In this document: positions 3,150 through 51,022 of the stretch, one piece after another
Position numbering within the stretch: position 1 is the first letter of the stretch
Layout: the number at the start of each line of letters is the position of its first letter
Assembly (NCBI GenBank): GCA_030998225.1
Contig: JAPYXD010000308.1
Coordinates: 6,024,001 to 6,088,000, forward strand
Origin: Diplolepis rosae
Lineage: Eukaryota > Arthropoda > Insecta > Hymenoptera > Diplolepididae
Reading direction: 5' to 3'
DNA length: 64,000 bases
Position numbers and translations under genes: made by a program
Notes under the pieces: model-generated
Database searches by the model: none
Told to the model about the DNA's origin: nothing
The model's input: only the letters and a program-made list of their open reading frames with translations

Positions 3150-3288
3150 TGTCTCGGCTTTGCCTCAGCTACGCTTCGGCTACGCCTTTCCTGAGCCTCG
3201 ACTATGCCTTGTCTTCGATCACCTGCGAGAATTGTCGCTCGTCGCGTAATAATCCTCATTATGCGCCTAGGCACATAATATACTATTA
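3150..3288. repeat. GC-richer dispersed repeat, second copy at 5605-5720
   Basis: A run of degenerate CGGCTACGCCT-type units followed by a conserved tail (CCTGCGAG, TTGTCGCTCGTC, CCTCATT, GCGCC, AATATACTATT). The same order is seen at 5605-5720 inside the foldback element. Both stand out from AT-rich surroundings. Function unknown. Confidence 0.75.
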
Positions 3289-9841: not shown

Positions 9842-11259
9842 GTAAGGAAAAAATTAAAGTTAATAATTTCAAAATGTGAATGTGAGTTAATATAAAATAA
9901 ACAATATGTTATATCATTTATTAAATAGAACATTCCAAAGAGAAACACAATCGGAATAAATTTATATCTTTTTCTTATTAAACCATTTTGTTGAATGAAC
10001 AACGGCCATGAATCAAGCAAAATATAGTTGTAAATTTTGTATGTTTGGAAAAAATTTCAGGAAAGACCCATAGCTAACCCTTACTTTTGTAATAAAACTT
10101 TTCTTCAACAGATGTCCAAGAAACACACGTTTTCTAACCGGCACAGTGGTTTCAACATTGTTCTTTTCAGACCTGAGAGAAAAACCAGGGAAAAGAAGTA
10201 TAACAAGGAATAAAGGAAACTTTTTTCCCTATTACCTGATTTCCGGTCTGATGAAAACAAGGCAACGTCTAGCCATATTTACACGCCCGAAAACATGCGT
10301 TATTTTTTCATTCGTTGAAGAAAATAGCAATTCTTGAAATATTGAATTCATTTGCATTATTTGCGATATAAGAGTTTGAAATTGTCTACGAGGACACCTG
10401 TCTGCAACGTATCCTATCTGATACTCGGCTAGTGGTCCTCCGATAATGTAGGCAGCGACAAAAATTTCAAACTCAACTAATTCATTTTAAATTATTATTT
10501 GTCTTCACTTCGTATTCCATCCTATAGTTTAGGTATTTTTTATAAAATTTATGAAATGAGGACTAAAGAAACTCTTTAATTTATTTCCGTATTCAATAAT
10601 ATGTAGATGAATAATGCGATAAAATAAGAATGTTAAAAAAGATTATTTTTTATCTTTATAAAAAATTATTTTAAACTAATTATCAGTGATAAATGTGGTA
10701 CATATAATTAATAAATACAAATAATTTACTGGGCGGTGAGAATAATTGTTATTAACAAACTTTATAGACAATAACTGTACTATGATTCCTAACTATAAAA
10801 AATGTTGATTTCCAAACGGTAATTGCTCAGATTTACGATTACAGATTATAAGAAAAATGACAAACATTAACTTTGTTAATATACAATTTATTTATAAGCA
10901 ATTTAATGAACAAAACATTTCATCGAGGTTTAAAATTAAGTTTTTTTACTTAATTTTGCTCCATATAACTACAATTAACAAAAATGTAATAATAATAATT
11001 ATATATATCTTGCATTATAATTATTCTTTTGATTAATCATCCCCTTCAAATTTTATTTTATCGAATAACATAGATTTCCACATTGGTAACAATTTAATAA
11101 TTCTGAAAATCTTCACATTTTAATTTATTGAAGTCGATATTATTGAGTAAAATGTAGTAAAAGATTTTCGCGTTGAGATGTTAAAGAAATGTTCATATTT
11201 ATAGAATGGTATGTTGATGGAAAATTGGCTTTAGGGTCCATAAAATGATTAAGTCAAAT

Positions 11260-11306
11260 TTAATCAAACGTTTCGGCTCTGATCGGAGCCCTCATCAGTG
11301 ATATTT
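11260..11306 (-). ncRNA. Hammerhead-ribozyme-like motif 1
   Basis: Minus strand: stem I strand ending ATCA, CTGATGA, an extra G, stem II GGCTC/GAGCC, GAAAC, GTT, then TGATT. Stem III would be the self-complementary ACGT, which can pair only between two copies. The cleavage triplet is GTT, not the optimal GTC. Confidence 0.5.
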
Positions 11307-11376
11307 ATTAAAATCTAGAAAATACAAAAAGGTTCATGTCGCTAATTTCACATATTTTCTCGGAGTTACTGGAGTA

Positions 11377-11714
11377 CACTGATAGAAATGGTTCGGGAGT
11401 TTTAGCCATTCGGTTGCAGGCTGGGAATTTATAATTGTATTTATAAAATAATATGTCTCTCTGAACAACGCAGGATGTTTAATACAGAAATCAAAATATT
11501 GTAAGTGAAACTGGTCGAATCAGAAATATAATATGGGAAGGCTAACAATACATTTTTCCATAGCAACCAATAATATGGTTGATTCGTTCATATTTATTCA
11601 GTTATATTCGGATGGTTAAAATACAAATCTCATATGGCTGTATCTATGCCAGCAATAAGGTAAGGTTAAATTAATCATAAATATCGTTGTAACAGCCATT
11701 CCTTTCTATCAGTG
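11377..11714. mobile_element. TA-flanked miniature element (Tc1/mariner-like ends), empty site visible at 33657
   Basis: Ends CACTGATAGAAATGG and CATTCCTTTCTATCAGTG are inverted. TA is present on both sides (11375-11376 and 11715-11716). The paralogous repeat at 33651-33662 has the uninterrupted sequence GGAGTACATAAAAT with a single TA, which is the pre-insertion state. Non-coding and 338 bp long. The TA duplication is what Tc1/mariner transposases produce. Confidence 0.88.
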
Positions 11715-11715
11715 T

Positions 11716-12389: not shown

Positions 12390-12394
12390 ATTTT

Positions 12395-13620
12395 TATTGC
12401 TGTAGTGTGAATATTCGTCAGTTAAGCTTTTTATAAGGGTTACCGTTCCTTAAGAAATTTCAAATTGAAATGAAAGCTGAAATTTTCACTTTGATTTCTG
12501 AGAGTGATTATAAATCTCCTCCAATTATCCCTATGATATTTTTCAATCAGACCAAAATTAACATACTTCAAATATTGTAAAACATGGACAAATCAATATT
12601 GAAATTCAATATTTAAAGAATTTGAAAATCTTTCTGTGGAAAAAAAGACGCTTTCGAATGCGCTGGGATTCAAGCCAAGGTCCTTCGATTGCCGTTTTCC
12701 GTTAAGGTCATGTGTGACGTCACCAAGTAATCAATTATTTTTTCGCCCATATAACTTTTTTTGTAATAAAAATAATATTCTAAAGCTTTGCACCCGGAAA
12801 ACAGTTTTTTGGCAGCTCGAAAACGGTTTCTTTCAATCAAAGAAACATTTTTTTGATATACAGTCGAAGAAAAATTCTTTGTATTGCAGAAAGTTTTGTT
12901 GATTTAATGAAATTTTCTTTAATGTAAACAAATCTATTTCTTTGGATCAAAGAAAATATTTTTTGAATTATCAAAACTTTTTTTAATTCAGACATTTTTT
13001 CTTTGACCGTATATCGAAGAAATATCAGTCAAAATTTGTAGATTATTGATAGAAACAAATTTGCATTCTTACTTTTCTTTTGTATTTCACATATTATGGT
13101 TAAAAAAATTGAATTTTTCTTGTAAAAAAATGTAATGATTTAAATTTGTAGATCTTTATGTAGTAAACAATTTTTTATCATAACTTTTTTCGTATTTCGA
13201 ATAATCCCACTGAAAAATGGAAATAACAGATATACAGAATCCAATTTGAGTTGAAACGTTTGAAAATATGAAACTTTGAGTTACTTTGAGTCATTTTACA
13301 TGACCTTAACGGAAAACGGCAATCGAAAGACCTTGGCTGGAATCCCAGTGCAGTCGAAAGCGTCTTTTTTCCACAGAAAGATTTTCAAATTCTTTAAATA
13401 TTGAATTTCAATATTGATTTTTTGAATGTTTTACAATATTTGAAGTATGTTAATTTTGGTCTGATTGAAAAATATCATAGGGATAATTGGAGGAGATTTA
13501 TAATCACTCTCAGAAATCAAAGTGAAAATTTCAGCTTTCATTTCAATTTGAAATTTCTTAAGGAACAGTAACCCTTATAAAAAGATTAACTGACGAATAT
13601 ATAAAATGCAGAAATAAAAA
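12395..13620. mobile_element. Third nested foldback element
   Basis: Arms about 12395-12712 and 13303-13620 are inverse copies (CCTTAAGAAATTTCAAATTG, CTCCTCCAATTATCCCTATG, CGCTTTCGA, TTTCCGTTAAGGTCATGT). The spacer holds TTTCTTTGATC-type palindromic units and a degenerate TTTGATATACAGTC motif at about 12850 with its inverse near 13005. No protein. Confidence 0.82.
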
Positions 13621-16557: not shown

Positions 16558-16654
16558 AATGAAAAAAAAAATGTTTTAAGCAATATTAAAGATAGTCTAA
16601 ATAAAATGTATCAATAATGTTATATTATAATATAATTCATATTCTGGACTTACA

Positions 16655-16850
16655 TTGACCCTTAATTAATAATTGAAGATATATGTTGATGTTGGTAATT
16701 GGCTTTAGGGTCCAAGGTTGATAAAAACTCAGAGTTTTACATAATCAGACGTTTCGGCTCTGATCGGAGCCCTCATCAGTGATTTATTCAAATCTAAAAA
16801 TACAGAAAAAGGTTTTGCTAACATAGGATATTTTGTATAAAAAATTTTTT
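16655..16850 (-). mobile_element. Copy 2 of the ribozyme-type repeat
   Basis: Starts GGACTTACATTGACCCTTA, shared with the copy at 39986, followed by TTGGCTTTAGGGTCC and the hammerhead-like core. It is a single, non-palindromic copy, so it may be a solo end. Confidence 0.72.
16743..16786 (-). ncRNA. Hammerhead-ribozyme-like motif 2 (best copy)
   Basis: On the minus strand: AATCA, CTGATGA, extra G, stem GGCTC/GAGCC, GAAACGTC, TGATT. Stem I pairs AATCA with TGATT (5 bp), the cleavage triplet is the optimal GTC, and stem III is the minimal ACGT. All invariant core bases of a type I hammerhead are present. The single extra G beside stem II is the only deviation. Confidence 0.62.
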
Positions 16851-17857: not shown

Positions 17858-18897
17858 GATGCGATTGTACATAGAAAGAAAAAAATTTTTTTACATAAAT
17901 AAAGGTATGAAAAGACGTAGAGAGCCGCGAAAAAAAATTCTAGGAGTAATTTTATCGAAATCTAATAGTAATGTCTTAGTGTTTAATGTGTAGTACTTTC
18001 AAATGTGTAGGTATGGTATTTTTTATTATTAAATTTGTGCACAATTCTATCCAAATTTTTAAATCCTATCACAGACTATATATAGAGTAAAAAAGGAGGA
18101 CTAACCTTGATTAAAATTACGACTTTTTGTATAAATGTTATTATCCAGTTTTTTCTTTTTCCGTTTTTTGGGAAGACACATAACTTAGACTGCACACACT
18201 TCTCCCCTGGGAGGTTGACTCGTAAACTGAGTTATGTTTTGGTTTTTAGGCATGCATATTGGGATGAGAGTGGAGGGTAAGATTTTTTTCCCCTTTAGGG
18301 ATTTTTTTTTGGAGAAAGAAAAGGATGTGCTGGAGGTGGCTGGACTGTTAGGACAATGAGAAGACCATAAATTGTAACCGGAGACATAAAGGTTTCGTCG
18401 GCATATTTTGAGTGTTTCCAGAAAGTATGTGTATTTATGTATTTCAGGACTTTTAGGATTTTTTAATAATATGAATTTTGAATGGAGTTAAGCTTGGTTG
18501 TTTAAGAGAGGGAGATAAAAAACTGATAAATTTTCTGTATCAGTCCTTTGATTTACAGAATGTGAGGTACTGGCTATGTGGGTCATTTCTAGAATCATGC
18601 GTTTTTTGTAGTTATCTGATCTGTCTATTATTGTGACTTCATCAAAATTAAATTTGTGATCTTGGTGCCATGCGTGTTTCGTTAGGGCAGTCCATTTTTC
18701 TGGAGGGTTAAAGACATCTTTTTTATGCTCATGGATTCTGGTTTTTAAGGGGCGTTTGGTCGTGCCTATATAAGTAGCTTTACAATCTGAGCAAGGTATA
18801 TTGTAGACGACATCAGCGGCATCAAGCAACGGGATTGGGTCCTTGGCTGATTTGAAAAGGTGTGATAGGTCGTTGATATTACGGGGAGCTATTTTTA
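17858..18897 (-). repeat. Inverted 5' copy of the Penelope-like terminal repeat, with GIY-YIG coding
   Basis: Inverse copy of 25417-26456 with the same length (1,040 bp) and no gaps that I can see. It includes the C-terminal 113 codons of the element protein on the minus strand (18488-18829, TYIG motif). The near-identity implies recent formation or gene conversion. The breakpoint at 18897/18898 abuts the truncated start of the RT gene. Confidence 0.9.
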
Positions 18898-18909
18898 GTA
18901 CAGCTATGA

Positions 18910-20280
18910 GTAAAATACAACCAAAGGATTCTCTTACTTCGATGTAGAAGAGAAAAAGTACTACCTAAACATCTTCAACTTCACGCTCGCAACTTGGTTT
19001 TGTTCGACAACAATAATATCACACGTACTCATTTATCCGCGATAAATAAATTCAAATTCACCGTACTTAACTTAGAGATTAGAGATATCTGTATCACGAT
19101 TCACAGATTAGAAAAAGACTTTCAATTCCTTCAACAAAAAATTAAGCAAAAGTTTCCAGCACACATTTACAAACAGTTCTTTCTATACGAGTCCAATAAA
19201 GCACAAAAAATTTTCTCGGCACAAAAAAACATTTGTAAATCCAAGTTTGTAAACCTTATCAACGAAAAAAAACAATTTCTTGACAAATGACAACGCCTTT
19301 TGCCACGATCCCGTTGAATCCTGGTTCACTAACTTGACTGACACGCAGTTTCCACCTGCAGTGGCAAATACTCTTAGCCTGGGTAAAAATTTTGGTATCC
19401 CCTTTCGCCATAAAACAAGTCCCACAAAACACATAATCGCCGACTTTGAATCCAATATCCATAAAATTAATGAGGGAGACAGAAATGAAGCAAGACTAAA
19501 ACTTGTTAACTGCATCAACACCTATTCACATCAAATAAGAAACCCTACAAATAACTTCCAAAAACAAATTATTCATAATTCACAATTAACGAAAACTTTC
19601 CTGAAAAATAATCCAAACATATTAATCACAAAGGCGGATAAAAGTAACACAACCGTAGCTATAGAAAAAAACAAATATATTGATGACGTCCAGCTCATGT
19701 TATCAGATAAAAATACATACGAAACCCTTAAAAGAGACCCAACGAACACAACCCACAAAAAAGTCAACAATCTTGTAAAGCTGTGGAAGAATAAAAATTA
19801 TATCACTGAAAGCATGTCCAACTTACTGAAGTCAAGTAACCCCCTACCAGCAAGATTTTATGGCTTACCTAAACTCCACAAGCCTAACAACCCACTCAGA
19901 CCCATCGTCTCTTTCTGTGGCAGCCCTACCTATAATCTAGCATCCTTTTACAATAACATTATTTCAAAAAACATAACTCCTCCTATGTCACGAATTAAAA
20001 ACAGCTTTGATTTCATTGAAAAAGTCAAAAACACCAAAATTCCATCTGGTTACAAAATCATTTCGTTAGATGCTGTTTCACTTTTCACCAACGTTCAAAT
20101 TGGTCTTGCTATGTAAGGTATCAAGGCTAGGTGGTCCCAAATTCAACCACACGTTAACATGCCCTGGTACCAATTTGAAAAAGGTATCAGAACATGTTCC
20201 ACAAACTCAGCATTCAATTTCCAGGGTATGTTCTTCAAACAAAAATCTGGTTTTCCAATGGGTTCCCCACTCTCTCCTAT
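18910..20280 (+). pseudogene. Penelope-like reverse transcriptase, N-terminal and RT part, interrupted
   Basis: The reading opens at 18910 without an ATG until 18994, shifts frame at the eight-A run 19265-19272, and continues from 19280. RT landmarks in order: LITKADKSN, RFYGLPKLHK (about 19855), LRPIVSFCG, SLDAVSLFTNV (about 20068-20100), then after a TAA at 20114-20116 (same frame, probably from AAA) GFPMGSPLSPI at about 20250-20280. The ISL2EU element begins directly after this motif. The N-terminal end appears lost at the junction with the inverted terminal copy. Confidence 0.88.
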
Positions 20281-20424
20281 TGGCAGACTGCAGAAAGGCA
20301 GAGGGGATAAACAAAACGATGGAGGCGTTTATGGTGGTGAAAATGCTAAAAGGCGTCGTAGAAGCGTAGCATAGTCTGCATTGTAGACTGTTGTAAATAT
20401 TGAATATTATTGTTTATTTCTACA

Positions 20425-22174
20425 ATGGTTAGTAGTTGTTGTGTATTTAATTGTAAAAATACACACGAAAATAGTACGTGTGAATTTTACAAATTCCCTA
20501 GACATGCTTACAAAAAAAATCAAAAGGAAAAGTGGATTGCTGCTGTACAGCGAGTTCAGTAAGATACCATAACCAAACTTTTAGTCAGCGGCAATGCCTT
20601 CAATACAATACTTGTGTATTTACATTTAGACGTTTTTTTCTAGCCCGAATGGATCTAAATGGATTTTAAAACCACATCATGTTATATGCAGTGAGCATTT
20701 TGTCGGGTATAAAAAATCAGATTGTTATTTAAGCCCTAGCTACATTCCAACTGTATTCTCTTCTGAAGGTCGAGATGAAGTTAATGAAAAGCGCGTACTT
20801 AACAGGTATAAATATATTATTTGAGTGTATTTATAATGTAATATATTGTTTATTATAAAAAAATTATTTATTTTTAGACACAAACGATTTTTAAAACGGA
20901 GAATGTCAAACCAAATAACGAAAAATTTGAAAAAGGCTTGTGTTGTTTTGGAGCAACATCAAGTTAATTGCAATAAAAATCTGGACCAACGAGAGCAAAT
21001 TAGTGATGAAAATCATGAATTTGGTGAAAGTGTTTTTGAGCATAAAACTGCAGATCAAGGATGTCAAGTAGAAATGTTTGATTCAAAGAACCTCAAAACT
21101 AATTCATTCACTTGTATTAAGTACATTTACTCTGATAAAACTTATTGTGACGTGGAGATTCAAACAGATTTAACGCATTTAAATACATTTGGAATTAAAA
21201 AAAAAAAAGTAAAAAACCAATGTGTAGGTACGCCTTCAAAAAGTTATTCTGACCAAGAAGTTACGTGTAATTTAGAACATGAACACAAAAAGTTTTCTGG
21301 TTATGAATCAATTATTAATGAAAAGCAATTAAAACACACTGCAGGAATCACGATAGAAAATTTTGAATTTTTATCGAAAAGGGCTCGGTCAGCTGCTGTA
21401 GAAAACAAGTGCACAGTTTCGTTGAAAAATAGGCTATTTATATTTTTAATTATAATGAAAACAGGTTTAAGCTTTGCTGCATTAAGTGTTTTTTTTATCT
21501 GTAAACGAGACAACAATTTCAAGAATTTTTTTTCAATGTTGCATCATTTATCTTCCACTACAGCAAACTTAGTGTTTTGGCCTGATAAGAAAATGGTGCA
21601 AAGTACAATGCCAGAGTGTTTCAAGCCAGAATATGCAAACACTCGAGTTATAATTGATTGTACTGAGTTTAAAATTGAGATTCCTAGAGGTGTAAGTAAT
21701 AAAGTATTGACTTACTCTCATTATAAAAAAGGATTTACAGCAAAAGTTCTCATTGGAATATCTCCATCAGGATTCATTAGTTTCAAATCCAAAGTTGCTG
21801 GAGGAAGAAAATCAGATTCAAATATGACAATAGAGGCACAGCTTGTAGACTTACTTGAAGATGGAGATGAAGTTTTAGCTGATAAAGGTTTTCCGGAAAT
21901 CAAAGCGAAGATTGACGAGGCAGGCAAAAAAGTATTACTTGTTATGCCACCATTCTTGGAAAAAAGCGAGTTTAGTAAAGAAGAAACAGCTCTTACGTAC
22001 AGTGTAGCAAAAGTACGTATTCACGTAGAAAGGATAATGCAACGATTGAGGACATATAAAATTTTGCAATTCATACCAGAACACTTTTTCTCAAGTATTG
22101 ACGACGTATTACACATGGCCTGTGTATTGGTAAATCTGCAGCCCCCAATATTTTCAGGAATCGAAATTAAATAA
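20425..22174 (+). CDS. THAP-domain DDE transposase of the ISL2EU element
   Basis: Three exons: 20425-20558, 20644-20805 and 20878-22174, with GT-AG introns, joining to 530 codons plus stop in one frame. Exons 1-2 form a C2CH THAP zinc finger that binds transposon ends: CCVFNC near residue 6, FYKFPR, KWI, then CSEHF and the closing YIPTVF. The DDE_Tnp_4-type catalytic domain follows, with acidic residues at about D359 (IIDCTEF), D434 (LADKGF) and E483 (HVERI). The domain appears complete, so the enzyme could be functional. It would cut and rejoin the element's ends. The start ATG lies about 145 bp inside the left end. Confidence 0.9.
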
Positions 22175-22479
22175 TAAGAACCTTTTGTAGAATAATTCAG
22201 TAATTTATTTTTTCAATCACTGCATTAATTTTACACTTTTTGGTTTTTAATACCTTGTATTTTGTTCGGTAGTATATTATTTTTATTACTTGAATAAACT
22301 TATTTTTTTTACATTAAAACGATGTAACATTTTTCTTAACATGATACTGTAGAAATAATAATTAGTTACTTTATACTGTTTAAAACAGAAATGTTGTATT
22401 TAACATTAAAAACATTTTCATTAAAGAACTTAAAAAGAAACAAGCTTATAATTAAAATCAATAATCTTCAAAATAAATT

Positions 22480-24684
22480 TCAAATTTGATTTGAAATATC
22501 CTTTCCTGTGAAATTCGTTTTATCTTGTACTTGATTTTTGATTAATCTTGATTGTAGTGCAGGTAAATAACGGTTGAAATAAAATTCTTCGCTTTTAACA
22601 ATGACTTCTTGTAAAAATGCTTCATCTCGTTGAACTTCAACGCAGCACCATCCATTTTTAACTAGTGTGTAAATAAACAGATCACAAGTACATAGGCCAC
22701 TTATATACATTTGCACTTGACACTGAGTGTAGTATGCAGAACTTTTTTTAATTCAACTTCTGCTTCACTAAATTGTAAATATTTAACATTGCTAAGTTTA
22801 TTTTTATAATCTATAATTGCCACCTTTTCACAACTACTTGGACACTTGAACTCAACAATTTTATAGATACAACTATCTTTTACAACGACTCCATCAAGGC
22901 TTCCACACAACCATGGTTGCTTTTCGCTGACTAAAACTCCAAGTTTTATAACTTCCACTCCATACAGTTTCTCATACATCTCCTTGGCTTCTTTTTCATT
23001 TTTTGTACCATATAGGGTTGACTTACTCTTAATGTTTTTTGGATTTAGCATATCCATAACTAAGGATTCTTCAGTCTTCTTCTTTCTAATTTTAATAGAG
23101 TGTACGTTTTGACTAGCACTTATTCTTGATTGTCTAGCTTTAAACCATTTACTGCAATTAGATTGTTCTAAGGTTTCGCAACATAAATTTATTATATTTT
23201 CTCTGTCCATCACAACATTATTCAAATAAAACTGTTTATCATTTTCACTAATTTTACAATTACTTCTATAAATAGGATGATCCATTAAAAACATAAATAT
23301 TTCATTTACGCATGCTTGACAGTTCTCTGCACGTAATTCGATTTCAACTTTATCTAGAAGACTATTAACACAATTCTTGATTTCAAAATCAATTGCACTT
23401 TGTTGAGCTGCCATTATGATTAATTTTAATGATGAATTTCCCTTTAACTCTGATATTTCTACTTTCACTGGTTCAACATCCACACTTTTTGTGGTTTGAT
23501 ACATTTCATGAAAGTACTTTCCTTTAGAATAAACCTCTTGAGCAAATTTTTTAGCAGATACGTGCCCCCAAAGTTGCTGTTGATCAGTTTTAGTTAAGCT
23601 TTCGACATGATTAATATAATAGATCAAGGCAGCAATGTGCTTGCACTTTCCACTTTTATTGTATACACATGTGCAAGACACACTCGTTACTTCTCTTTTT
23701 AAATTGATCTGTAATAGTAAGAATATGCTCTTAATTTAAGGGCATGTAATACTTAGGAAATTAGTGAATTTTATTGATTTTAGCTTTTTGTATGTTTATG
23801 GCTAAAGTACATAAAATTTTCTTTTTAAAATTTGGAAAATAGTAGAGCACATAAAAACGTACGTATATAGGATACTTTTGGTATCAAAATTTTAAAAAAG
23901 TTAAATTTTATTAAAATATATCGGAGATTTTTTTCAATTTTCAAAATCAAAAGTAGTCTATCGACGTCCGTTTTTATCTTCTTTATCATTACTCAAATTT
24001 TAAAAACAAAAGTTTATATATTTTGGACACAAACATGGAAAAACTCGACCAAATTGTTCACATGAACTTGATACTTTCCTTAAGTATCACTTGCTCTTGA
24101 TTATACAATTTCAAGAAGAATAAATAATTGAACGTTTTAAAACTTTTTCTCACAATTAACTTCGTAGAGTATGGTGTCGAAGATACTGATGCTTGTCTAA
24201 TTATATTAGCAGAGATTGTATAATAATTTACATCAATTTTATGCTCTTCTTGCACAAATCGAGCATGTCCAGCTCCTACTAGAGCTTTACCTTTCGACAT
24301 TGTTTCAGGTTGGAACTGAATTTTATGAGATATTTTTTGAAACCCAGTTTTAATTATAACATTCATAATTCATCTAAAAGAGAAAAGGTTTCATTCATAT
24401 TACATTTTTTCAAATCAAGTTTTCATATGAAATGACAGATTAAGAATTATAAAACTATGAAAACATTAATATATTTTGCAATTTTTCATTTTATAAGTAT
24501 ATACTTATTACTTAGTCTAATATTTACATTTTAATAACCTAAAATGACGCAGTGAAAATTAATAGTTACACTAGAAAATTTTACTTACTTTCAGTTTTCT
24601 ATTCCCCACGTATTTAAAAACATTATTATTCTCTTTTTCAAACTTATTACTTTTATTTATACGAGCTTTTATTAAAAATCTCAT
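22480..24684 (-). CDS. SWIM zinc-finger and YqaJ-type nuclease of the ISL2EU element
   Basis: Minus strand, model of three exons: 24684-24589, 24315-24154 and 23708-22480. Exon 3 contains a SWIM motif (CTC, then GKCKH) followed by a YqaJ-like exonuclease domain: SASQ, the YGTKNEKEAKEMYE helix, GSLDGVV and VEFKCPSS, which supply the acidic and lysine residues of this fold. The frame breaks in a seven-T run (22743-22749): 23708-22750 reads up to VELKK and 22742-22480 continues as AYYTQCQVQM. This may be a real 1-nt deletion or a base-calling error. The exon 1-2 junction is tentative; an alternative start is ATG at 24300. YqaJ proteins accompany ISL2EU transposases; their role in transposition is not established. 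Confidence 0.78.
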
Positions 24685-24775
24685 AAAAGCTGAACCTTTA
24701 TCAATGTTATTCTTCCGACGCTTTCGAACGCTTTCACCGAGAGCGGCGCTACCTGTCTTTCTGCAGTCGGCCAAT

Positions 24776-25826
24776 AGCCGCCGATATCGTCATGGACGAC
24801 CTCGAGAAGAAATGCATAGATTCTCTCCCATTTCAAGTCCCATTTTATTTCAGATATGTGGACGACATATTAACAGCGGTACCAGTCAACGAAATCGACA
24901 CAATAAAAAATACATTCAACAGCCATAACCATAAAATACAATTCACAATAGAAGAAGAATCGGAAAACAAAATCTGTTTTCTTGATGTTCTCGTTATTAG
25001 AGACGGAGAAAACATAAAAGCAGACTGGTACCAGAAACCAACACGGTCCGGCCGCCTTCTCAATTTTCATTCACATCACCCGCTCAAATACAAAATCAAC
25101 ATAATTAATAATTTAGTCGACAGAGGCATTACTCTAGCACACAAAAGCTTTCACACAAAAAACATTCAAAAAATAAAAATGACTTTGATTAAAAATAATT
25201 ACCCACGAAAAATCATCAATTCAACGATTCAAAAAAGACTAAATTACCTCTCGAAAAAAGCCTCTGTTACAAACGCACACACACAAAAAGTACCCAAGAA
25301 CGACACAATCACAGACACACACTCCAACACGGCAGGTCAACTTTCAAAGTACATACCATTACCTTACGTACAAGGACTCACTGAAAAAATTTCGGGTATC
25401 TTAAAACCATTTAATATAAAAATAGCTCCCCGTAATATCAACGACCTATCACACCTTTTCAAATCAGCCAAGGACCCAATCCCGTTGCTTGATGCCGCTG
25501 ATGTCGTCTACAATATACCTTGCTCAGATTGTAAAGCTACTTATATAGGCACGACCAAACGCCCCTTAAAAACCAGAATCCATGAGCATAAAAAAGATGT
25601 CTTTAACCCTCCAGAAAAATGGACTGCCCTAACGAAACACGCATGGCACCAAGATCACAAATTTAATTTTGATGAAGTCACAATAATAGACAGATCAGAT
25701 AACTACAAAAAACGCATGATTCTAGAAATGACCCACATAGCCAGTACCTCACATTCTGTAAATCAAAGGACTGATACAGAAAATTTATCAGTTTTTTATC
25801 TCCCTCTCTTAAACAACCAAGCTTAA
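24776..25826 (+). pseudogene. Penelope-like RT C-terminal part with GIY-YIG endonuclease
   Basis: The downstream half of the protein interrupted at 20280. It opens AADIVMDDLEKKCID and carries the catalytic RT box FRYVDDILTAV (about 24850-24880), the thumb region and a GIY-YIG endonuclease domain (VYNIP at about 25507, TYIG at about 25540, then R and H residues). The frame is intact to TAA at 25824-25826. The endonuclease domain lies within the terminal repeat and therefore also exists inverted at 18488-18829. Confidence 0.9.
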
Positions 25827-26456
25827 CTCCATTCAAAATTCATATTATTAAAAAATCCTAAAAGTCCTGAAATACATAAATACACATACTTTCTGGAAAC
25901 ACTCAAAATATGCCGACGAAACCTTTATGTCTCCGGTTACAATTTATGGTCTTCTCATTGTCCTAACAGTCCAGCCACCTCCAGCACATCCTTTTCTTTC
26001 TCCAAAAAAAAAATCCCTAAAGGGGAAAAAAATCTTACCCTCCACTCTCATCCCAATATGCATGCCTAAAAACCAAAACATAACTCAGTTTACGAGTCAA
26101 CCTCCCAGGGGAGAAGTGTGTGCAGTCTAAGTTATGTGTCTTCCCAAAAAACGGAAAAAGAAAAACTGGATAATAACATTTATACAAAAAGTCGTAATTT
26201 TAATCAAGGTTAGTCCTCCTTTTTTACTCTATATATAGTCTGTGATAGGATTTAAAAATTTGGATAGAATTGTGCACAAATTTAATAATAAAAAATACCA
26301 TACCTACACATTTGAAAGTACTACACATTAAACACTAAGACATTACTATTAGATTTCGATAAAATTACTCCTAGAATTTTTTTTCGCGGCTCTCTACGTC
26401 TTTTCATACCTTTATTTATGTAAAAAAATTTTTTTCTTTCTATGTACAATCGCATC
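25417..26456 (+). repeat. 3' terminal repeat of the Penelope-like element
   Basis: 1,040 bp, inverted at 17858-18897. It holds the last 136 codons of the protein and about 630 bp of 3' untranslated sequence. I looked for a hammerhead core here, as in some Penelope elements, and found none. Confidence 0.9.
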
Positions 26457-31653: not shown

Positions 31654-33481
31654 GAATTGAATCGAATTAGTCTATCCCTCTCTCTCTCTCTTCCATAACG
31701 CGATACGCATTCGCCAACGACTTGAAAAAAATACGCAACCTAACCTGACAGTCTTAAAAATGTAAACAAGAACTACGCTGTCGCTAGTAGAGTGAGAGGG
31801 TTTCACCAACCTCACCTTCTCTCTCTTTCTAACGACCGTACGCTTCCACTTTAACACGCCCAGAGATGAGTTGGGAGATTGCTAAAGTAATGGAATAAGA
31901 GAATTTCACAAAAGTGGGCTGATAAACGCGCCCTCTGAACGCGTTGCGCAAAAGGTGCACTTTGCGCGTCGGTAAATAATAAAAGTTAGAAAATCCAGAC
32001 ATGATTTACCATCAGAGTTGCTATGGGCAAAGTTATCATAAGCAGATTATGAGCACGAAATGCAAAAAGTGCATAATCATTTACTATGAGAATATTCATT
32101 ATTTAATACATACATAAATTTGTGTTCATAGTTACTTTTCGCTATTTATTGTATCTTCAACAATAATTTCATCGTATAGGCATATTAAATTTATACGCAA
32201 AATATAACTATTATACATTCAATATTTTGTAGCAGATTTTCAGGTTTTTTTTCAATTAAATTGAAATTGCATAATTCACATAGAGCGACATTATAAACGC
32301 GGGTAATTATTTTAACTTTAAGATAACTTTTTTCCTAAATTGTCTTGAATCGTTTTAAATTAAATTTTCTGAAATTACATTGTCTTGAAGTACCGCTTTG
32401 CCGAACAGTCAAATTATTTGTGAACCTACTTAACCCTTGTGAACAATATTGTTTAGTACAATTATTAAAAATTAATATTCACTTTTTCACTTTTTATTTA
32501 TTTACTAGAACATATTATCAAAGAACCCGAAACCAAAGCGCAGGACCGAACGGGATATCCTGCAATATCCCATTGCTGTGAGGGAATTAGGAGCGTATAT
32601 TTATACGTATATCTAAATAAATCGTTAAACGAATTTTTTTATTCCATGAAGCCTCACCCCCACATTTTGTATTATTCGATGAAGATAGATTTTGCTAATT
32701 TTTGCAGAGTTTTAATTATGTTTTTCGAGAAACATAGAGCGAGAGAGCAAGACTTGAAAACGCAAAAAGTTCTTGAAACACCTTTATGAACGTTGTACAA
32801 AAAATATACTTTAAAAAGAACTCGCTTCATTCTCACGTCAGTTTACCGAATTAACAAGTAATATTTTAAAGGTTTTTTTACCCTGTCTCAAAGAAACAAG
32901 CTTCAGATTTTTGCGGAGGCATATAACGCATTTTTCAAACTTGTCGGACATTTGTTTCTGTCTTTTTTCCAGAGTGAAAGAGACTATTTGGAAGAAAGTA
33001 TCAATACCGTGTAATTTAAATTTGAGGTAAGTAGCAAGATATTTTATATCAATATAATCGGGCTTGATTTTCTCTTAGTATTTCTATAATTCTTCAATGA
33101 ATTATATAGTTACATAAATCAATTGTTTTTCTAAATACCTCAAAAAGGGAAAGAATTCGTAGCATTGATTTAATCAAACGATTTTGCATTGCAATGTTTT
33201 TCCTATCTTACATATTTTGGCTAAAAAGTGGAATGTTTGATTTTCAATCTTTCCCTATTTTACATATTCTGGCTAAACAATTGAATTTTCGATTGTCAAT
33301 AGTATATATACTTTTTATGATAAAACTATGCAATTAAAATACGTATATATTTTTGAGGTAAACAATTTTGTATTGTAACATTTGTTTCATATTTCCTATA
33401 GTTTAGATGTTGAATGGAATATTTATATTGACTTCTTTCGAGTTGTAACATACTGTAAATTTTCTAATTTTAATTTAATTG
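31654..33481. other. Gene-free stretch with fragments of repeats
   Basis: CT-rich tracts at 31676-31692 and 31821-31836. A block at 31861-31892 (CAGAGATGAGTTGGGAGATT) recurs inverted at 54629-54658. 33080-33480 belongs to the satellite-like family. The open frame 32345-32581 has no recognisable features. Confidence 0.5.
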
Positions 33482-34175
33482 ATAGAATGGTATGTTGATG
33501 GAAAATTGGCTTTAGGGTCCATAAAATGATTAAGTCAAATTTAATCAAACGTTTCGGCTCTGATCGGAGCCCTCATCAGTGAGATTTATTAAAATCTAGA
33601 AAATACAAAAAAGGTTCATGTCGCTAATTTCACATATTTTCTCGGAGTTACTGGAGTACATAAAATATGGCACAAAAGGAGTACTTGATATATTAAATAA
33701 AAGAAGGAAAGTTTGGAAAGAAATGTGACTATTTTTCAGTTTTGTGAATTATATTGTTACAAATTGTTCAAGAATTTTATTTATTTTATTTTTATTTAAT
33801 ATTGTTTTAAAAAATTTTTAAGAATGCTTCCGAAATAGTTTCAGACGTATATTCAAAATATTTATATTCATATTTCAACGTAGCTTTTTTTAAAATATCT
33901 TAGGGAAAATAGTTCATACAAATCCCTAATAGCCTCAACCAATTTTGTTGTGAATTATATTGTTATAAATTGTTCAAGAATGCTTTCAAAATAGTTTCAG
34001 ATAAATAGTTCAAAAATATATATGTATATACATATTTTAACACAGTTTTAAAATCGTTTAGGAAAAATAGTTCAATCAAATCCCTATAATAGCCTCAACC
34101 AATTCAGTTTAGCGAATTTATTTGTAGACACCGGTATGTACAAGAAATGAATAAATGTGAATATTTTTATACAAA
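33482..34175 (-). mobile_element. Copy 3 of the ribozyme-type repeat
   Basis: Near-identical to 11211-11376 plus 11715-11780, without the miniature element present there. After about 33717 it diverges, then matches the right half of the foldback again at about 33990-34175 (CCAATTCAGTTTAGCGAA, GTAGACACCGGTAT). It holds the unexpanded form of the 12-kb microsatellite. Confidence 0.8.
33543..33590 (-). ncRNA. Hammerhead-ribozyme-like motif 3
   Basis: Minus strand CTGATGA, extra G, GGCTC/GAGCC, GAAACGTT, TGATT. Stem I is reduced to 3 bp because the 5' strand reads TCTCA instead of TATCA. Probably decayed. Confidence 0.45.
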
Positions 34176-38738: not shown

Positions 38739-40082
38739 AGTGTCCAAGATCGTGAAACTTTTCGACCCCCACTACCGACCCGTGTAGAACCTTACGCAAA
38801 CAAATACGGCGAGTCGGCGGGTCTCCTGCCATTCTCTACCATTCTCCACTTCCTCGCTTCGATTTCAGGCTGTCGGCTGTTGAGCCAAAATCCAGAATTA
38901 TATTTCTCTCAAATTCGTAAAAAAGAGGCGTGAAGAAGACGGAAAATTCAAAATAACAAAATACACTTTTAAAATAATTACAATTCATTTTTAGATATTT
39001 TAAAAAATATTCACTTAAAACAAATATTTGAAATATTTCGTAAAATATTTAATTTTAGGATTATTTAAATACGTAAAAAATCATTTCCTAATGAAATTTA
39101 AAGTCAATAAATGTTAAAAGTTTCAAAACAAAATACGAATTTCAGTATTTTTTAGCCTCTTGAATTAAATACTTTAATTAGAAAATTTTGTGGAGAATAA
39201 TTTACATGTACTTACAGTTCTGAACGTTCATTGAACGATGGAACATATTCTTGTTTGAAAACTGAATGATTAGTTATTGTCCCAGAAAATTAAAAACATA
39301 GTGTATTGTTCATAAACGATTGTATATTTAAAGGGCCCTGAATATTAACATAATCATTAATTTTCTTCTAGAAAAAAAAGTTTGTTATCGTTCAAAATTG
39401 TAAGTACATAATTTACAACAAGATAGGATTCAACATGAGATACAAGTTTAAAAAATAAAGGGTTTGAATATTTAAACAATACGTGAATTTCATTATATAT
39501 CGTTGAATAAAAGGTTTCAGTATTTAATAAACAAAAGCTATACCTAAATTTGCAAACGAAATTACGCTTCGCAATTTCTGTAATATGACATAGAATTGAT
39601 AAATGTTTCTTTCGAATAAAATACTGCTGAAAAATTTGTATAATACGTAACATCTTGAACATAACAGTTTCACCTATTTCATTCATTATTGAAGCATCTG
39701 AATTTTAATAATAACAAATAATGTCAAAAAATGTGACACATTTAATACATTTTTCCAAAGTATTTTACTCTATAGCAATGGTTTGTCGAATTTACTTCAC
39801 ACCAAATTAATCTCAAAGTGCGAATTTGTATGCGAATTCAGATTTAATTTGTGCTGTTTTTAAATATACAAACCCTTCTTTTTATCAGAATCAGTCGGAA
39901 AGTAAACTCAGGTTACTTCTTCGCATAAATACTTTCTTAAGTTCACATTAAATTAAATATTGATTATTATTTTAAATAATAAACAGGACTTATATCGACC
40001 CTTAGTATTAAAATTTGAATATTTTTGTTGTGCTTAGTTGGCTTTAGGGTCCAGAAAAAATGTAAACTCAAGGTTTCATATT

Positions 40083-40126
40083 TTCAAACGTTTCGACTCA
40101 GGTTGGAGTCCTCATCAGTGAGATTT
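40083..40126 (-). ncRNA. Hammerhead-ribozyme-like motif 4
   Basis: Minus strand CTGATGA, extra G, stem II GACTC/GAGTC, GAAACGTT. Stem II differs in sequence from copies 1-3 but keeps base pairing, a compensatory change. Stem I is only 3 bp. Confidence 0.5.
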
Positions 40127-40599
40127 ATTTCTATAAAAAATACAAAGGAGGAAAAGTTATAAATTACCGTGATGCAAAGCCTTTTACCAGGTCTGTTTCC
40201 AAATGTAACTCAGTTTTATAGAAAAATCCGTAGTGAAAAGAGTTCCTTTAAAAAATTATGTGCTCATCTTGTTTGCGATGTAAGAAAAGAAAGAGAAAAA
40301 AAGGAATATTGTGTTTGTCGTCACTTGGATTAAATAAATTTTTTTCATCATCGTCTTCTACATCTATTGAACGTAATAACAGGTCAGTTTTTTTGTTTTG
40401 GCAATGTTTGGTGTGAGCTCGCAGTCCTTAAACCTTTTTCTGTATAGTTAATCTGTCACACGTACAATGGGCTAAGTTTTTTCAAGTTTCTTCTCTTTGT
40501 ATTCTTATAGTAAATATTTTTTATGGTACATTTTTATTTTTCTGTAAATTTTGGTCATTTATACCAGTTTTTAGTTTCATAAGTGTAGTTCCTTCATAT

Positions 40600-41630
40600 C
40601 AATTTTCCACAATGTTCATTGCTCACACATATAAAAAAAGTTTTTCGTTTCACTTTGTTATTTGCATATAAAACAATTTTGTGGCACGTTTTTGTATGAA
40701 AAATTTGTTTGTGGAAATTTGGTGTTGGACCAATTTCATGGTTTCACATGTACAAATCACTTATATCGTTTGTTTATATCGATTTACCACAATGTCACCC
40801 GTCACACGTGCTACTTTTAAGTTTCTATCTTTAGCAATTTTACAAATCAAGGTTTTATAGTTTTACCCCTTTTAGAAAATTTATTTATTTATACCATTTT
40901 TATAGTCTCAGTTTTGCAATTCTTTCACATAATTTTTTTTTTTCAACAGAATGTTCATCGGTCACACGTTCAAAATTGTTCAAGTTTTGTATTTGTATGG
41001 GAAAAAAAAAAAAAAATTTTTTTGTGTGTACAGTTCTTTTACATTTAGTTTATACAGATTTTACATTTCCACATGTACAATTTATTTAGATCGGTTTTAC
41101 CACAATGTTTTATCTTTCACACGTAGTTAGTTTCGATTGTGCAATTTGTTTATATCGATTTACCACAATGTTACCCGTCACACGTGCTACTTTTAAGTTT
41201 CTATCTTTAGCAATCTTACAAATCAAGGCTTTATAGTTTTACCCCTTTAGAAAATTTATTTATTTATACCATTCTTATAGTCTCAGATTTGCAATTCTTT
41301 TACATAATTTTTTTAACAAAATGTTCATCGGTCACACGTTCAAAATTGTTCAAAGTTTGTATTTGTATGGGGAAAAAAATTTTTTGTGTACAGTTCTTTT
41401 TACATTTAGTTTAGACAGATTTTACAGTTCCACATGTACAATTTATTTATATCGGTTTTACCACAATGTTTTGTCTTTCACACGTACTATTCTTTATGTT
41501 CTTTTCAGTAATTTTACAGAAAAAATTTTTGCACACTTATTGTACAGTCTTACTTTATCGCAATTTTAGTTTTTTAGTACAATTCTATTGTTTCACATAT
41601 TTTTACCACAATGTTTATCCGTCTCACGGT
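40600..41630. repeat. Internal tandem repeats with ACCACAATGTT and TCACACGT motifs
   Basis: Eight copies of an ACCACAATGTT-like block followed by TCACACGT, at about 40608, 40791, 40945, 41099, 41160, 41318, 41459 and 41608. A larger segment (40770-41095) is repeated about 370-376 bp downstream (41146-41465). Confidence 0.8.
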
Positions 41631-41666
41631 AATTTATAACTTTTCCTCCTTTGTATTTTTTATAGA

Positions 41667-41712
41667 AATAGATCTCACTGATGAGGACTCCAACCTGAGT
41701 CGAAACGTTTGA
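41667..41712 (+). ncRNA. Hammerhead-ribozyme-like motif 5
   Basis: Plus strand, mirror of motif 4: CTGATGA at 41679, extra G, stem II GACTC/GAGTC, GAAACGTT. Together with motif 4 it forms an outward-facing pair. Confidence 0.5.
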
Positions 41713-43332
41713 AAATATGAAACCTTGAGTTTACATTTTTTCTGGACCCTAAAGCCAACTAAGCACAACAAAAATATTATTTTAAATTTTAAATCAAATA
41801 TTTATAATATTTCCAAGGAAAATAAAATGCGCCTGAAAATATGGAAAGTTATTAACGTAATCACAAGCTTTCTCATAAACACTTTACAAAACCTTTGATG
41901 ACTTAATATATTTATCTCCTTACATTCTGCTCAGGATTCATCAAATAATTATTTACAGGAGAGAATTCTCACATCATAAATAGCCGATTTTGGGAAGGGT
42001 TTCTTTTATTATTATTTGAAAATTATTTTTTTTATATAAGTAAAAGGATTCTTCACAAAATTTGGATTTTTCACTCACCGAAAGTGACAATTATACTGAC
42101 AATTATCTTAAAGACAATTACACTGACAATTATATTATTTGTATAGTGTTCAATTTTTGTTTAATGGGACATTTCATTATTTTATAGCTATTGTTGTGTA
42201 ATGAAAGTAGTGAAAATATGTAGGAATAAATTATATATGTTAAACCACGATATATGGAACAACATAACAAATTTGCATGGTTATACATATTCGCACTTTG
42301 AGATTAATTTGGTGTGAAAGAAATTCGACAAACCATTACTATAAAGTAAAATACTTTGGAAAAAATGTATAAAATGCGTTACTTTTTTACATGACAATTT
42401 AAGTATATAAGTATAAATATAGAACTTAATTATTTAAAAAATACATGAAGTATACCTTAATTAACGATTAAGAAGAAAAATTAATAAAAATATAATATTA
42501 ATAAGATACTTCAACAATAGCTGAAATTACAAGTGAATCTGTAGTTTTTTATGCAAATTTAGATATAAGTTTTGTTTCTTACATACTGGAAACTTTTGTC
42601 GACATTTATATATTGAAATTGACATGTGGAAAATATTACGTATTTCAAAAATTTTCAAAGTATTTTATTCAAATGAAATGTTTTTCAATGTTGCCTTATA
42701 CCAGAGAGACCCTACTGTATATAATTTCGTGCGAGAACTAAGATATGATTTACGTATTGTTTAGATATCCAAATCCTTCATTTTTTAATTGAATTTCATG
42801 TTGAATCATATCTTCAAATAAAATAGCGACCACATAATGTTCCAATTAAAGTATTTAATTCAAGAAGCAAAAAAATAATGAAATTCATATTTTGTTTTGC
42901 AATTTTTAACATTTACTGACTTTGATTTTCCGTCTGCTTCGCACCGTTTTTAGACGAATTTGAGAGAAATATAATTCTCGATCTTGGCTCAACAGCCGAC
43001 AGCCTGAAATCAAAGGGAAGAAGCGAGGACACACCAACACGCCGTGTTTGGACTTTGGTTGCGCGAGGTTTCACACGTGTCAGTGGTGGGGGTCGAAAAA
43101 TTCTACGATCTGGGAACACTGGCTGTGCATTTTCAATAATCAATCTCATTTCTCCATACTCTGGTGTAAATGATCTGTAAAATTTCGAATACTTTAAAAC
43201 GCGGAGAATTCATTAAAAATTTAATACTATCTAATACTCAATAAACGCGAGGCATTTATACTTTATTTAATACGATTCAATAATTTTAAATGCGAAGCAC
43301 TCATTCTGTACTTAATGCGCCGTGAAGCTTAA

Positions 43333-43981: not shown

Positions 43982-44149
43982 TAACAGGAGGAAGTGCTGT
44001 TTGGACGCTACTCAGCGATATTTTTTTTCTCAGTGGACTTTTATACTGAAATTATGCTAATAAAATTATTGAAAGGAGTCAAATACAATTTATTTGATCA
44101 ATGCAATTTTCATTTTTCATGTCAGTAACTATTGTAGTTCTATTTTTAG

Positions 44150-49171: not shown

Positions 49172-50198
49172 TTGTGCTGAAGCAGTGTAATGTTCACATG
49201 TCTGTTAGGCAAATCAAACTCATTCAATAAACATTACTTTCACTTTCATCTCTGCACATGAATATGGTCAGTGATTTCAAATCCTTCCCCTCTCTAATAG
49301 TGAACGTTCATTTATTATTGGTTGTGGAATTATGCAAGTAACTATCCCTTTAGTTTCGACAAAACGACATAAAATTATTACAGAAAAGTAACTACAGTCT
49401 CGGGTTGTAAGGGATGTTTCACCTGCATAAATTCATATGTTGTTTCTAAAATTAATGTAATCTCAAGCTTTATGAATGTTTAATAAGGTCAAAACACCAA
49501 TTACCAAGAGGGAACAATTTGTCGAGAAAATAGTTGATTTCTTATAATCTAAAACTGTAATCTGTTATTTTTTAGTAGAAGTCATTACATATAAGTCTCA
49601 TTTAAGCTACTGTATCAGAAAAATGAGGTTTGCATGCCAATCAAATGAAAATAGAAAATCTTATTTTCGACCTTGTACAATAAGTTCTCCCTCGGTAATT
49701 AGTGCCCGGTAATAAGGGCTGAATAGATAATAATTAAGAATTTAACGGGAGTGTATTAAAAAGAATTAATAAGCAGAAGAATGCAAAAGAAGGAATGGAA
49801 AGGCTTAAAGGAATTTCACTTTAAAAAATCCAGGTTGAATTTAAATGTATGAATAGTTTTCTCGTTAATAAATATTTTGTATTGAATTTTAATTTGTAAT
49901 TAGAATAGAAAAAATCTATCTGAATTGTATAAAAATTTTTTTATTAATATATTGAATGTATATTTGGTGTATTGCATTACAACCGCCATATATGATTCAT
50001 TAGAGGACACTGGATTAAATATGTAATATAAATATTTGTACCAGTGCTCCATTATAAATACTTGCAAAAAAATAAAAATAAAAATAAATAATTTTTGTAC
50101 AATATTACACTTTATTTCCCGTACTGAACTTTAATTTAATTTATTATCAATTATCATTGCTATTTAATTACTATCACATATTTATGAAGTATCTTATT
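49172..50198. other. Gene-free stretch
   Basis: AT-rich; no features beyond a possible LTR remnant at its left edge. Confidence 0.4.
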
Positions 50199-50293
50199 TA
50201 TAATGTTTGTTCATTTCTTTGGCATAGGGTCAGTTTCTTCTTATTTTCTTTGATTAAAATTATTATTACATTTAAAAATGCGCAAAAAGAAAG

Positions 50294-50338
50294 AAAGGCA
50301 AACGTTTCGGCCACATATGGGGGCCCTCTTCAGTGCCA
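50294..50338 (-). ncRNA. Hammerhead-ribozyme-like motif 6
   Basis: Minus strand: GGCA, CTGAAGA, extra G, stem II GGCC/GGCC, GAAACGTT, TGCC. Stem I pairs GGCA with TGCC (4 bp). The A in CTGAAGA falls at the variable core position 7. Confidence 0.52.
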
Positions 50339-50882
50339 TAAATTCAAAGATTAATTCAAAATTTATGTAAAGAATTACAATATAGAAGATAATCAAAAAA
50401 GAATTATAATAAAAATTAAAAACTTATCACATAGCTTGCAATTCAAAATGAAGTAGTCCAGTATGCAGCATCACGAATTGAAAAATTACGTGAAGTTCAC
50501 TATGAATAGTCGGTTTTTAAAACAGTTCAGATCATTCTGTGAGAGACGCCGGTATTAAAGTCTTCACGAGAAGTTTTCATTAATGTAAAACTTGTTCGCG
50601 TTTTGCCATTGTGAACAATTTGGCATCATTCATTAATAATAAACATTTTTTGAAAAAAATTCCGGTCGGTTCGTGTGCAAAATTTGTTATGTTTTTTAAT
50701 TTATCCGGTTTTTTATTCATAGTGAACTTCACGTAATTTTTCAATTCGTGATGCTGCATACTGGACTACTTCATTTTGAATTGCAAGCTATGTGATAAGT
50801 TTTTAATTTTTATTATAATTCTTTTTTGATTATCTTCTATATTGTAATTCTTTACATAAATTTTGAATTAATCTTTGAATTT

Positions 50883-50926
50883 ATGGCACTGAAGAGGGCC
50901 CCCATATGTGGCCGAAACGTTTGCTT
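50883..50926 (+). ncRNA. Hammerhead-ribozyme-like motif 7
   Basis: Plus-strand mirror of motif 6, CTGAAGA at 50889. Stem I GGCA/TGCT includes one G-T pair. Forms the outward-facing pair with motif 6. Confidence 0.5.
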
Positions 50927-51022
50927 TCTTTCTTTTTGCGCATTTTTAAATGTAATAATAATTTTAATCAAAGAAAATAAGAAGAAACTGACCCTATGCC
51001 AAAGAAATGAACAAACATTATA

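What the first reader, a model, noticed from the sequence alone, without database searches (positions are those of the whole stretch)
16743..16786. Hammerhead-ribozyme core with GTC cleavage site in a non-coding repeat
The minus strand has every invariant base of a type I hammerhead: CTGATGA, a 5-bp stem II, GAAA, a two-base stem III (AC/GT) and GTC, with stem I closed by AATCA/TGATT. Such minimal stems III are known from hammerheads of Penelope-like elements and work as dimers through ACGT pairing. An extra G beside stem II, present in all seven copies here, is unusual.
Basis: partly seen in the sequence, partly recalled or inferred. Interest (0 to 1): 0.85.

Follow-up and report, generated by a model that had tools for sequence, protein, structure and literature searches.

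The report
Penelope retroelement hammerhead ribozyme in repeats
A self-cleaving-RNA motif of a kind already known from Penelope-type jumping genes sits in several short non-coding insertions of this animal-like DNA; it is a good example of a known thing, with one extra base that is unusual but has precedent.

Summary
The hammerhead core at 16743-16784 (minus strand) is real. Seven copies occur in the window (five loci, three sequence types), against none in 200 shuffles. All seven keep the invariant core, the extra G and an ACGT in place of stem III. Stems I and II pair in all seven, with both-sided changes at three of their eight pairs. One detail does not hold for the repeat: only the focal copy has GTC; six have GTT, with 3-4 bp in stem I. 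The setting identifies it: two of five loci are head-to-head inverted repeats with 12- and 13-bp target duplications and a 3' 'tail' on one arm only, the published signature of Penelope pseudo-LTRs, and a Penelope-like RT/endonuclease element lies in the same window. That element carries no recognisable hammerhead, so the autonomous parent is not identified. Minimal type I hammerheads without helix III are already described from Penelope-like elements, and one unpaired base after A9 is known from a viroid hammerhead. New member of a known kind. Cleavage, dimerisation and dependence on the element's protein are inferred, not shown.

The parts
16743..16784 (-). Hammerhead-like motif, focal copy b (stem I, core, extra G, stem II, GAA, ACGT, C17); predicted cleavage 3' of 16748 on the minus strand
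   Evidence: read from sequence; 0 in 200 shuffles
16772..16772 (-). extra G between A9 and helix II (or, in the other register, a bulge after pair 10.1-11.1)
   Evidence: present in 7 of 7 copies
16646..16814 (-). pseudo-LTR fragment carrying copy b, with tail; 5' truncated about 35 nt before the motif
   Evidence: aligns to copies c and d; no target duplication found
16657..16712 (-). GACCC...GGGTC stem-loop downstream of the motif in copy b, A+C-rich loop
   Evidence: z -0.92, not significant alone
11197..11378 (-). copy a: repeat unit with hammerhead (core 11268-11298, GTT)
   Evidence: 98.4% identical to 33478-33660 over 183 alignment columns
33478..33660 (-). copy c: repeat unit with hammerhead (core 33549-33579, GTT)
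39978..41774 (.). insertion d/e: head-to-head inverted pseudo-LTRs (arms 40018-40172 and 41624-41778, the last four bases shared with the target duplication) with hammerheads 40088-40118 (-) and 41678-41708 (+), tail on the d arm only; interior with a 376-bp tandem repeat and no frame of 150 codons
39965..39977 (.). 13-bp target duplication, left of d/e (right copy 41775-41787)
   Evidence: a match of 13 or more in 0.00025 of random placements
50202..51073 (.). insertion f/g: head-to-head inverted pseudo-LTRs (arms 50199-50508 and 50714-51022, the first three bases shared with the target duplication) with hammerheads 50302-50333 (-) and 50889-50920 (+), tail on the g arm only
50190..50201 (.). 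12-bp target duplication, left of f/g (right copy 51074-51085)
   Evidence: a match of 12 or more in 0.00135 of random placements
13202..13310 (+). decayed eighth copy, by its flank of the d/e type (best model match 13228-13267)
17858..26456 (.). Penelope-like element, head-to-head: inverted 3' part 17858-18958 (-), N-terminal and RT part 18922-20281 (+), interrupted, RT/GIY-YIG part 24690-25865 (+); no recognisable hammerhead

Best explanation
The motif is the minimal type I hammerhead of a Penelope-like retroelement, kept in short, non-coding pseudo-LTR insertions. In an active parent, RNA reading through the pseudo-LTR would carry the motif just upstream of the A+C-rich stem-loop where reverse transcription starts; stems I and II form the core, and because AC/GU without a loop cannot close a hairpin, helix III must come from a second copy (ACGU with ACGU) or be replaced by help from the element's protein; RNA would then be cut 3' of C17 (or U17). 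Shown here: core, pairing with some covariation, insertion anatomy. Inferred: cleavage, dimer or protein help, timing. The focal copy itself is probably an inert 5'-truncated fragment. The confidence is for the identity; I put actual cleavage by the family's active sources at about 0.6.
For: Core invariant in 7 of 7 and absent from 200 shuffles. 70 of 70 cells paired, three pairs changed on both sides. Copy f resembles a-e in the motif (26-29 of 37 columns) and much less around it (11-13 of 30 upstream, 9-13 of 31-33 just downstream, 13-19 of 42-50 further on), so the motif is the conserved island. Two head-to-head insertions with target duplications and a one-armed tail match the published Penelope plan (PMC3846280, passages). 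Tail-less ends lie 65 and 99 nt after the cleavage site; in the anole element RT starts 111-118 nt into the ORF and the ribozyme cut is 26 nt in, i.e. 85-92 nt (PMC11167929). A Penelope-like element is in the window.
Against: No copy is linked to an RT ORF, and the window's own Penelope-like element lacks the motif (best match inside it E 2.9). Sense frames from the core on close within 51 codons. Predicted minimum-energy folds: 5 of 7 monomers mispair the core (f and g form stems I and II), and in 7 of 7 the hammerhead dimer lies 11.3-15.5 kcal/mol above the best dimer. 6 of 7 copies have GTT. Rfam does not call it. The downstream stem-loop is not significant in b and d (z -0.92, -1.28), only in g (z -2.29). 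Target duplications at 2 of 5 loci. Covariation is thin: three types, 61 of 500 shuffles reach the number of both-sided pairs and 434 of 500 the number of further pair types; stem III never varies.
Confidence: 0.8

Rival explanations
1. The motif is kept as an RNA structure of the pseudo-LTR (binding or start site for the element's RT protein, or 5' leader), not for cleavage. Compatible with the Penelope identity.
For: In the anole element, mutants that kill the ribozyme do not change insertion in vitro, and the RNA does not cleave without protein (PMC11167929). H17 = U in 6 of 7 copies, recalled to be a slow triplet.
Against: The catalytic letters (CTGANGA, GAA, ACGT) are unchanged in 7 of 7 while stem letters covary, which structure alone would not require.
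Confidence: 0.2
2. A relic: the copies are dead fragments, and the extra G or the GTT marks loss of activity in their recent source elements. Compatible with the Penelope identity.
For: The motif-bearing insertions show no frame of 150 codons and no match to 115 Penelope-like proteins; an eighth copy is decayed.
Against: Three types keep the full core and the extra G although f differs from a-e in the flanks, so the extra G predates them and was propagated by mobile sources.
Confidence: 0.3
3. Animal retrozyme: short non-autonomous repeats whose tandem hammerheads yield small circular RNAs.
For: Type I hammerhead in non-coding repeats; a/c is a defined 183-nt unit.
Against: No direct tandem of 150-450 bp: same-strand spacings are 5481, 16800, 6539, 10214 and 9211 bp; two pairs are inverted.
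Confidence: 0.05
4. Chance or an unrelated DNA palindrome.
For: The element arms are palindromic at large scale.
Against: 0 in 200 shuffles; pairing falls when the 3' partners are slid by 1-3 columns, to 18.6-35.7% of cells from 100%.
Confidence: 0.01

Closest known systems
Minimal (small) type I hammerheads of Penelope-like elements (Cervera & de la Pena 2014; Lunse et al. 2017; neither held, known here through passages of PMC7229834, PMC7761336 and PMC6155905)
   Same: type I order, same core, helix III reduced to nothing stable, in pseudo-LTRs and as dispersed non-coding copies
   Different: one extra G after A9 in all seven copies; whether those papers list such an insertion could not be read
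Poseidon element of Anolis carolinensis and its protein-assisted hammerhead (PMC11167929, section 'Main text' read)
   Same: hammerhead a short way upstream of an A+C-rich stem-loop where copies end; optional tail
   Different: there the ribozyme overlaps the start of the ORF; here the sense frames from the core close within 51 codons
Penelope elements of Adineta vaga (PMC3846280, passages read)
   Same: head-to-head inverted pseudo-LTRs, short target duplications, tail on one arm, foreign sequence between pseudo-LTRs in one case
   Different: the tails here are about 44 and 53 nt against 31 bp; duplications 12-13 bp against 8-10 in the passages read; hammerheads are not mentioned there (0 occurrences)
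CChMVd plus-strand hammerhead (PMC3705267, passages read)
   Same: one unpaired base directly after A9
   Different: A, not G; a viroid
Animal retrozymes (PMC7229834, passages read)
   Same: type I hammerheads in non-coding repeats
   [quoted passage not shown] not so here

Membership tests
Hammerhead ribozyme, type I, minimal (Penelope kind) | CUGANGA ... GAAA ... NUH core in type I order | tested here: met
   7 of 7 copies
Hammerhead ribozyme, type I, minimal (Penelope kind) | helices I and II supported by covariation | tested here: met
   all cells paired, both-sided change at 3 of the 8 pairs of stems I and II; 0 of 500 shuffles reach the covariation score, 61 of 500 the number of such pairs, 434 of 500 the number of further pair types; few events
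Hammerhead ribozyme, type I, minimal (Penelope kind) | helix III, or a palindrome that can make it in a dimer | tested here: inconclusive
   ACGT invariant in 7 of 7, so no covariation; a loop-less 2-bp hairpin cannot form; the hammerhead dimer is not the minimum-energy form in any of 7
Hammerhead ribozyme, type I, minimal (Penelope kind) | self-cleavage | not testable with these tools
   needs RNA
Hammerhead families of Rfam | score at or above the gathering threshold | tested here: not met
   none at gathering in 64 kb; best hammerhead score 16.1 against 48.5 bits; so it is not filed under an Rfam family
Penelope-like element, pseudo-LTR | head-to-head inverted pseudo-LTRs | tested here: met
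   d/e arms 99.4% over 155, f/g arms 99.7% over 310; a, b and c are single
Penelope-like element, pseudo-LTR | short target duplications | tested here: met
   13 bp at d/e, 12 bp at f/g; none recognised at a, b, c
Penelope-like element, pseudo-LTR | optional tail on one arm | tested here: met
   d not e, g not f; b also has it
Penelope-like element, pseudo-LTR | RT + GIY-YIG ORF in the same element | tested here: not met
   tblastn of 115 proteins gives no hit in 39978-41774 or 50202-51073, no frame of 150 codons there; hence filed as non-autonomous pseudo-LTR insertions, not as a complete element
Animal retrozyme | direct tandem units of about 150-450 bp each with a hammerhead | tested here: not met
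   same-strand spacings 5.5-16.8 kb
Dimer-cleaving small hammerhead | two motifs head to tail, close together | tested here: not met
   no such pair in the window; the parent elements could not be searched

The most novel reading that the evidence does not exclude
The extra G after A9 defines a maintained subclass of Penelope hammerheads: it is fixed in all three types seen here although their flanks have diverged, and together with the missing helix III (and, in five of seven copies, a competing GAUG/CGUY or CUCA/UGAG pairing) it keeps the RNA silent as a naked monomer, so that cleavage happens only once the element's protein (or a second RNA) folds it, coupling RNA cutting to assembly of the insertion complex.
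Probability: 0.15. Interest if true: 0.6.

Novelty: new member of a known kind. Interest (0 to 1): 0.33.

Why it matters
The role of hammerheads in Penelope-like elements is stated to be unknown (PMC7761336, passages), and the anole element needs its protein for cleavage in vitro and does not need cleavage to insert in vitro (PMC11167929). A family with complete insertions (target duplications, tails) and a consistent one-base core expansion gives a second, distinct test case, but the kind of thing is already described.

Tried and rejected
Retrozyme reading: rejected on spacing and orientation. Protein-coding explanation of the conserved core: the three sense frames from the core on close after 0-51 codons in the 7 copies (upstream frames not tested), and searches of PLE-like proteins for peptides that the motif would encode found none (whole sequences of 115 proteins; first 90 residues of 138 proteins with looser patterns). 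Linking the motif to the window's Penelope element: no match inside 17858-26456 better than E 2.9. Relatives elsewhere: three exact-pattern scans of viral contigs gave 0; one of genome contigs gave 3 bacterial contigs, which from their letters I judge to be chance (no control was run); a protein scan of viral contigs with P0012 gave 7 pattern matches and no relative. These collections are viral and prokaryotic, so the zeros say little. The host genome was never reached: the genome search 'own' did not answer in 8 tries. Host taxon: not determined; of 25 relatives named with an organism 19 are hymenopteran insects (4 rows are Anolis, 1 a fly, 1 a coral), and all 9 so named are ants (insect orders recalled); a tick THAP9 is a weak hit of another ORF.

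Papers: Cervera & de la Pena 2014, Lunse et al. 2017 and Arkhipova et al. 2017 are not held (one search used a DOI recalled wrongly); they are cited only through others. Searches that could show an extra base in Penelope hammerheads; none of the titles, abstract starts or passages seen reports one, but the key papers were not readable, so I make no claim that it is unpublished. Passages of PMC4918200 and PMC6466107 added only references and background. That GUU is cut more slowly than GUC, and the numbering of the hammerhead, are recalled.

Full report
Observation. On the minus strand at 16743-16784 the sequence reads AATCA-CTGATGA-G-GGCTC-CGATCA-GAGCC-GAA-ACGT-C-TGATT. The same core occurs at seven places. 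A scan that asks for CTGANGA, GAAACGT followed by A, C or T, at least 4 bp in stem II (one extra base allowed) and at least 3 bp in stem I finds these seven and nothing in 200 dinucleotide shuffles; I set its conditions after seeing the copies. Without the pairing conditions, CTGATGA and GAAACGT at 5-25 bases give five matches against a mean of 0.01. The seven are five loci: 11268 and 33549 lie in copies of one 183-nt unit (98.4%), 40088/41678 are arms of one insertion (99.4%) and so are 50302/50889 (99.7%). There are three sequence types of the motif.

Where the finding needs correction. GTC is present only in the focal copy; six copies have GTT. Stem I is 5 bp in the focal copy, 4 bp at 11268, 50302 and 50889 (the last with a G-T pair), and 3 bp at 33549, 40088 and 41678. 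The extra G is in all seven. Because the base after it is also G and pairs with the same C, it can be read either as an unpaired G after A9 or as a bulge after the first pair of stem II.

Is it a hammerhead by sequence? On the alignment of the seven, stem I (3 pairs), stem II (5) and the AC/GT of stem III (2) pair in 70 of 70 cells; three pairs change on both sides, one in stem I and two in stem II. The percentage paired, the number of cells so changed (6) and the covariation score exceed all 500 shuffles; the number of such pairs (3) is reached by 61 of 500 and the number of further pair types (3) by 434 of 500. Sliding the 3' partners by 1-3 columns drops pairing to 18.6-35.7%. Only two of the three types depart from the commonest pairs, so the events are few. 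Copy f resembles a-e in the motif (26-29 of 37 columns) and much less around it (11-13 of 30 upstream; 9-13 of 31-33 just downstream; 13-19 of 42-50 further on; g was not compared). So the motif is the conserved island between otherwise diverged repeats. Rfam does not report it at gathering score; below threshold it gives Hammerhead_3 at 15.2 and 16.1 bits for two copies, behind unrelated snoRNA models, and no hammerhead for f and g; c, d and e were not scanned in that way. A model made from the copies finds the seven, by construction, and a decayed eighth at 13228-13267 (+), E 0.023.

What carries it. The insertion 39978-41774 consists of two inverted arms, 5' ends inward and hammerheads reading outward, between 13-bp duplications TATTATTTTAAAT; the insertion 50202-51073 has the same plan between 12-bp duplications TATCTTATTTAT. 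Matches at least that long between such flanks occur in 0.00025 and 0.00135 of random placements in the window. In each, one arm stops 65 or 99 nt after the cleavage site and the other runs on to 109 or 152 nt, with a GGGTC that can pair with GACCC before it. Copy b also has this tail; it aligns with d to 39986, past the end shared by d and e. The GACCC/GGGTC stem-loop folds at -7.1 (b), -8.1 (d) and -9.7 (g) kcal/mol, z -0.92, -1.28 and -2.29, so it is convincing only in g on its own. Copies a, b and c show no target duplication.

This is the published plan of Penelope insertions: inverted pseudo-LTRs, most often head-to-head, short target duplications, and an optional tail of 31 bp at the 3' end of one inverted pseudo-LTR (PMC3846280, passages). 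In the anole Poseidon element RT starts in an A+C-rich stem-loop 111-118 nt into the ORF, the sequence between the two start sites is the tail, and the hammerhead cut lies 26 nt into the ORF (PMC11167929, main text), that is 85-92 nt upstream of the commonest start, close to the 65 and 99 nt here. A Penelope-like element also lies in the window, at 17858-26456: a search with its 3' frame found 115 related proteins, and tblastn with these gave 272 hits, all but a few in its RT and GIY-YIG parts (single weak hits at 3176, 5609 and 36167). It too has a head-to-head inverted 3' part, 99.8% identical over 1041 nt. Pfam finds GIY-YIG only in the inverted part and just under its cut-off (20.4 against 22.6 bits) and nothing in the two plus-strand frames; the identification rests on the related proteins, several of which carry RT and GIY-YIG Pfam domains. 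This element has no recognisable hammerhead. It is therefore evidence that such elements live in this genome, not that it is the parent.

How it most likely works. Shown: core, pairing, setting. Reported for relatives: minimal type I hammerheads without helix III sit in Penelope pseudo-LTRs and may cut as dimers, role unknown (PMC7761336, passages; PMC6155905, passages); the anole ribozyme cleaves in vitro only with its protein present, and insertion in vitro does not need the cut (PMC11167929). Inferred for this family: read-through RNA carries the motif upstream of the RT start; ACGU of one copy pairs with ACGU of another, or the protein holds the core, and the strand is cut after residue 17. 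Against easy activity: the predicted monomer folds mispair the core in five of seven (GAUG with CGUC or CGUU in b and a; CUCA with UGAG in c, d, e), while f and g form stems I and II; the hammerhead dimer lies 11.3-15.5 kcal/mol above the best dimer in all seven. In the inverted insertions a single transcript holds one sense and one antisense motif, which would pair with each other over the arms of 155 and 310 nt; no close head-to-tail pair exists in the window. The focal copy, truncated about 35 nt before the motif, is probably inert as an element.

The extra base. [quoted passage not shown] So one extra G is within known limits. That it is fixed in three types is the most interesting feature, and whether it has been listed for Penelope hammerheads I could not check, since the two key papers are not held.

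Verdict. A real motif, a real Penelope-type setting, a known kind of ribozyme; activity untested. Interest is modest.

Noticed in passing
window 20281-24690: The Penelope-like RT ORF is interrupted by a block holding a DDE_Tnp_4 transposase frame (20837-22171, E 8.6e-36) and a YqaJ-domain frame on the other strand (22704-23735, E 1.8e-13).
   Followed up: partly
window 44098-47112: An uninterrupted 1005-codon frame of the P-element/THAP9 kind (TNP-like RNase H, E 5.3e-25); a 99% identical protein is in the database without a name.
   Followed up: partly
window 40769-41486: A 376-bp tandem duplication (1.9 copies) lies in the interior of the d/e insertion, perhaps cargo between the two pseudo-LTRs.
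   Followed up: no
window 10330-14894: Large inverted repeat (arms 10330-11053 and 14169-14894, 96%; also 11065-11202 with 13932-14069, 97%) with nested inverted repeats inside; hammerhead copy a adjoins its left arm on the inside and the decayed eighth copy lies inside it too.
   Followed up: partly
hammerhead copies a-e: TCACT, named as an initiator-like sequence of a Penelope pseudo-LTR in PMC3846280, overlaps the start of the motif in 5 of 7 copies.
   Followed up: no
window 51047-51066: The tail of copy g holds a second hairpin (GACAUGUU/...AUGUC); the stretch 50988-51070 with it folds at z -3.11.
   Followed up: no
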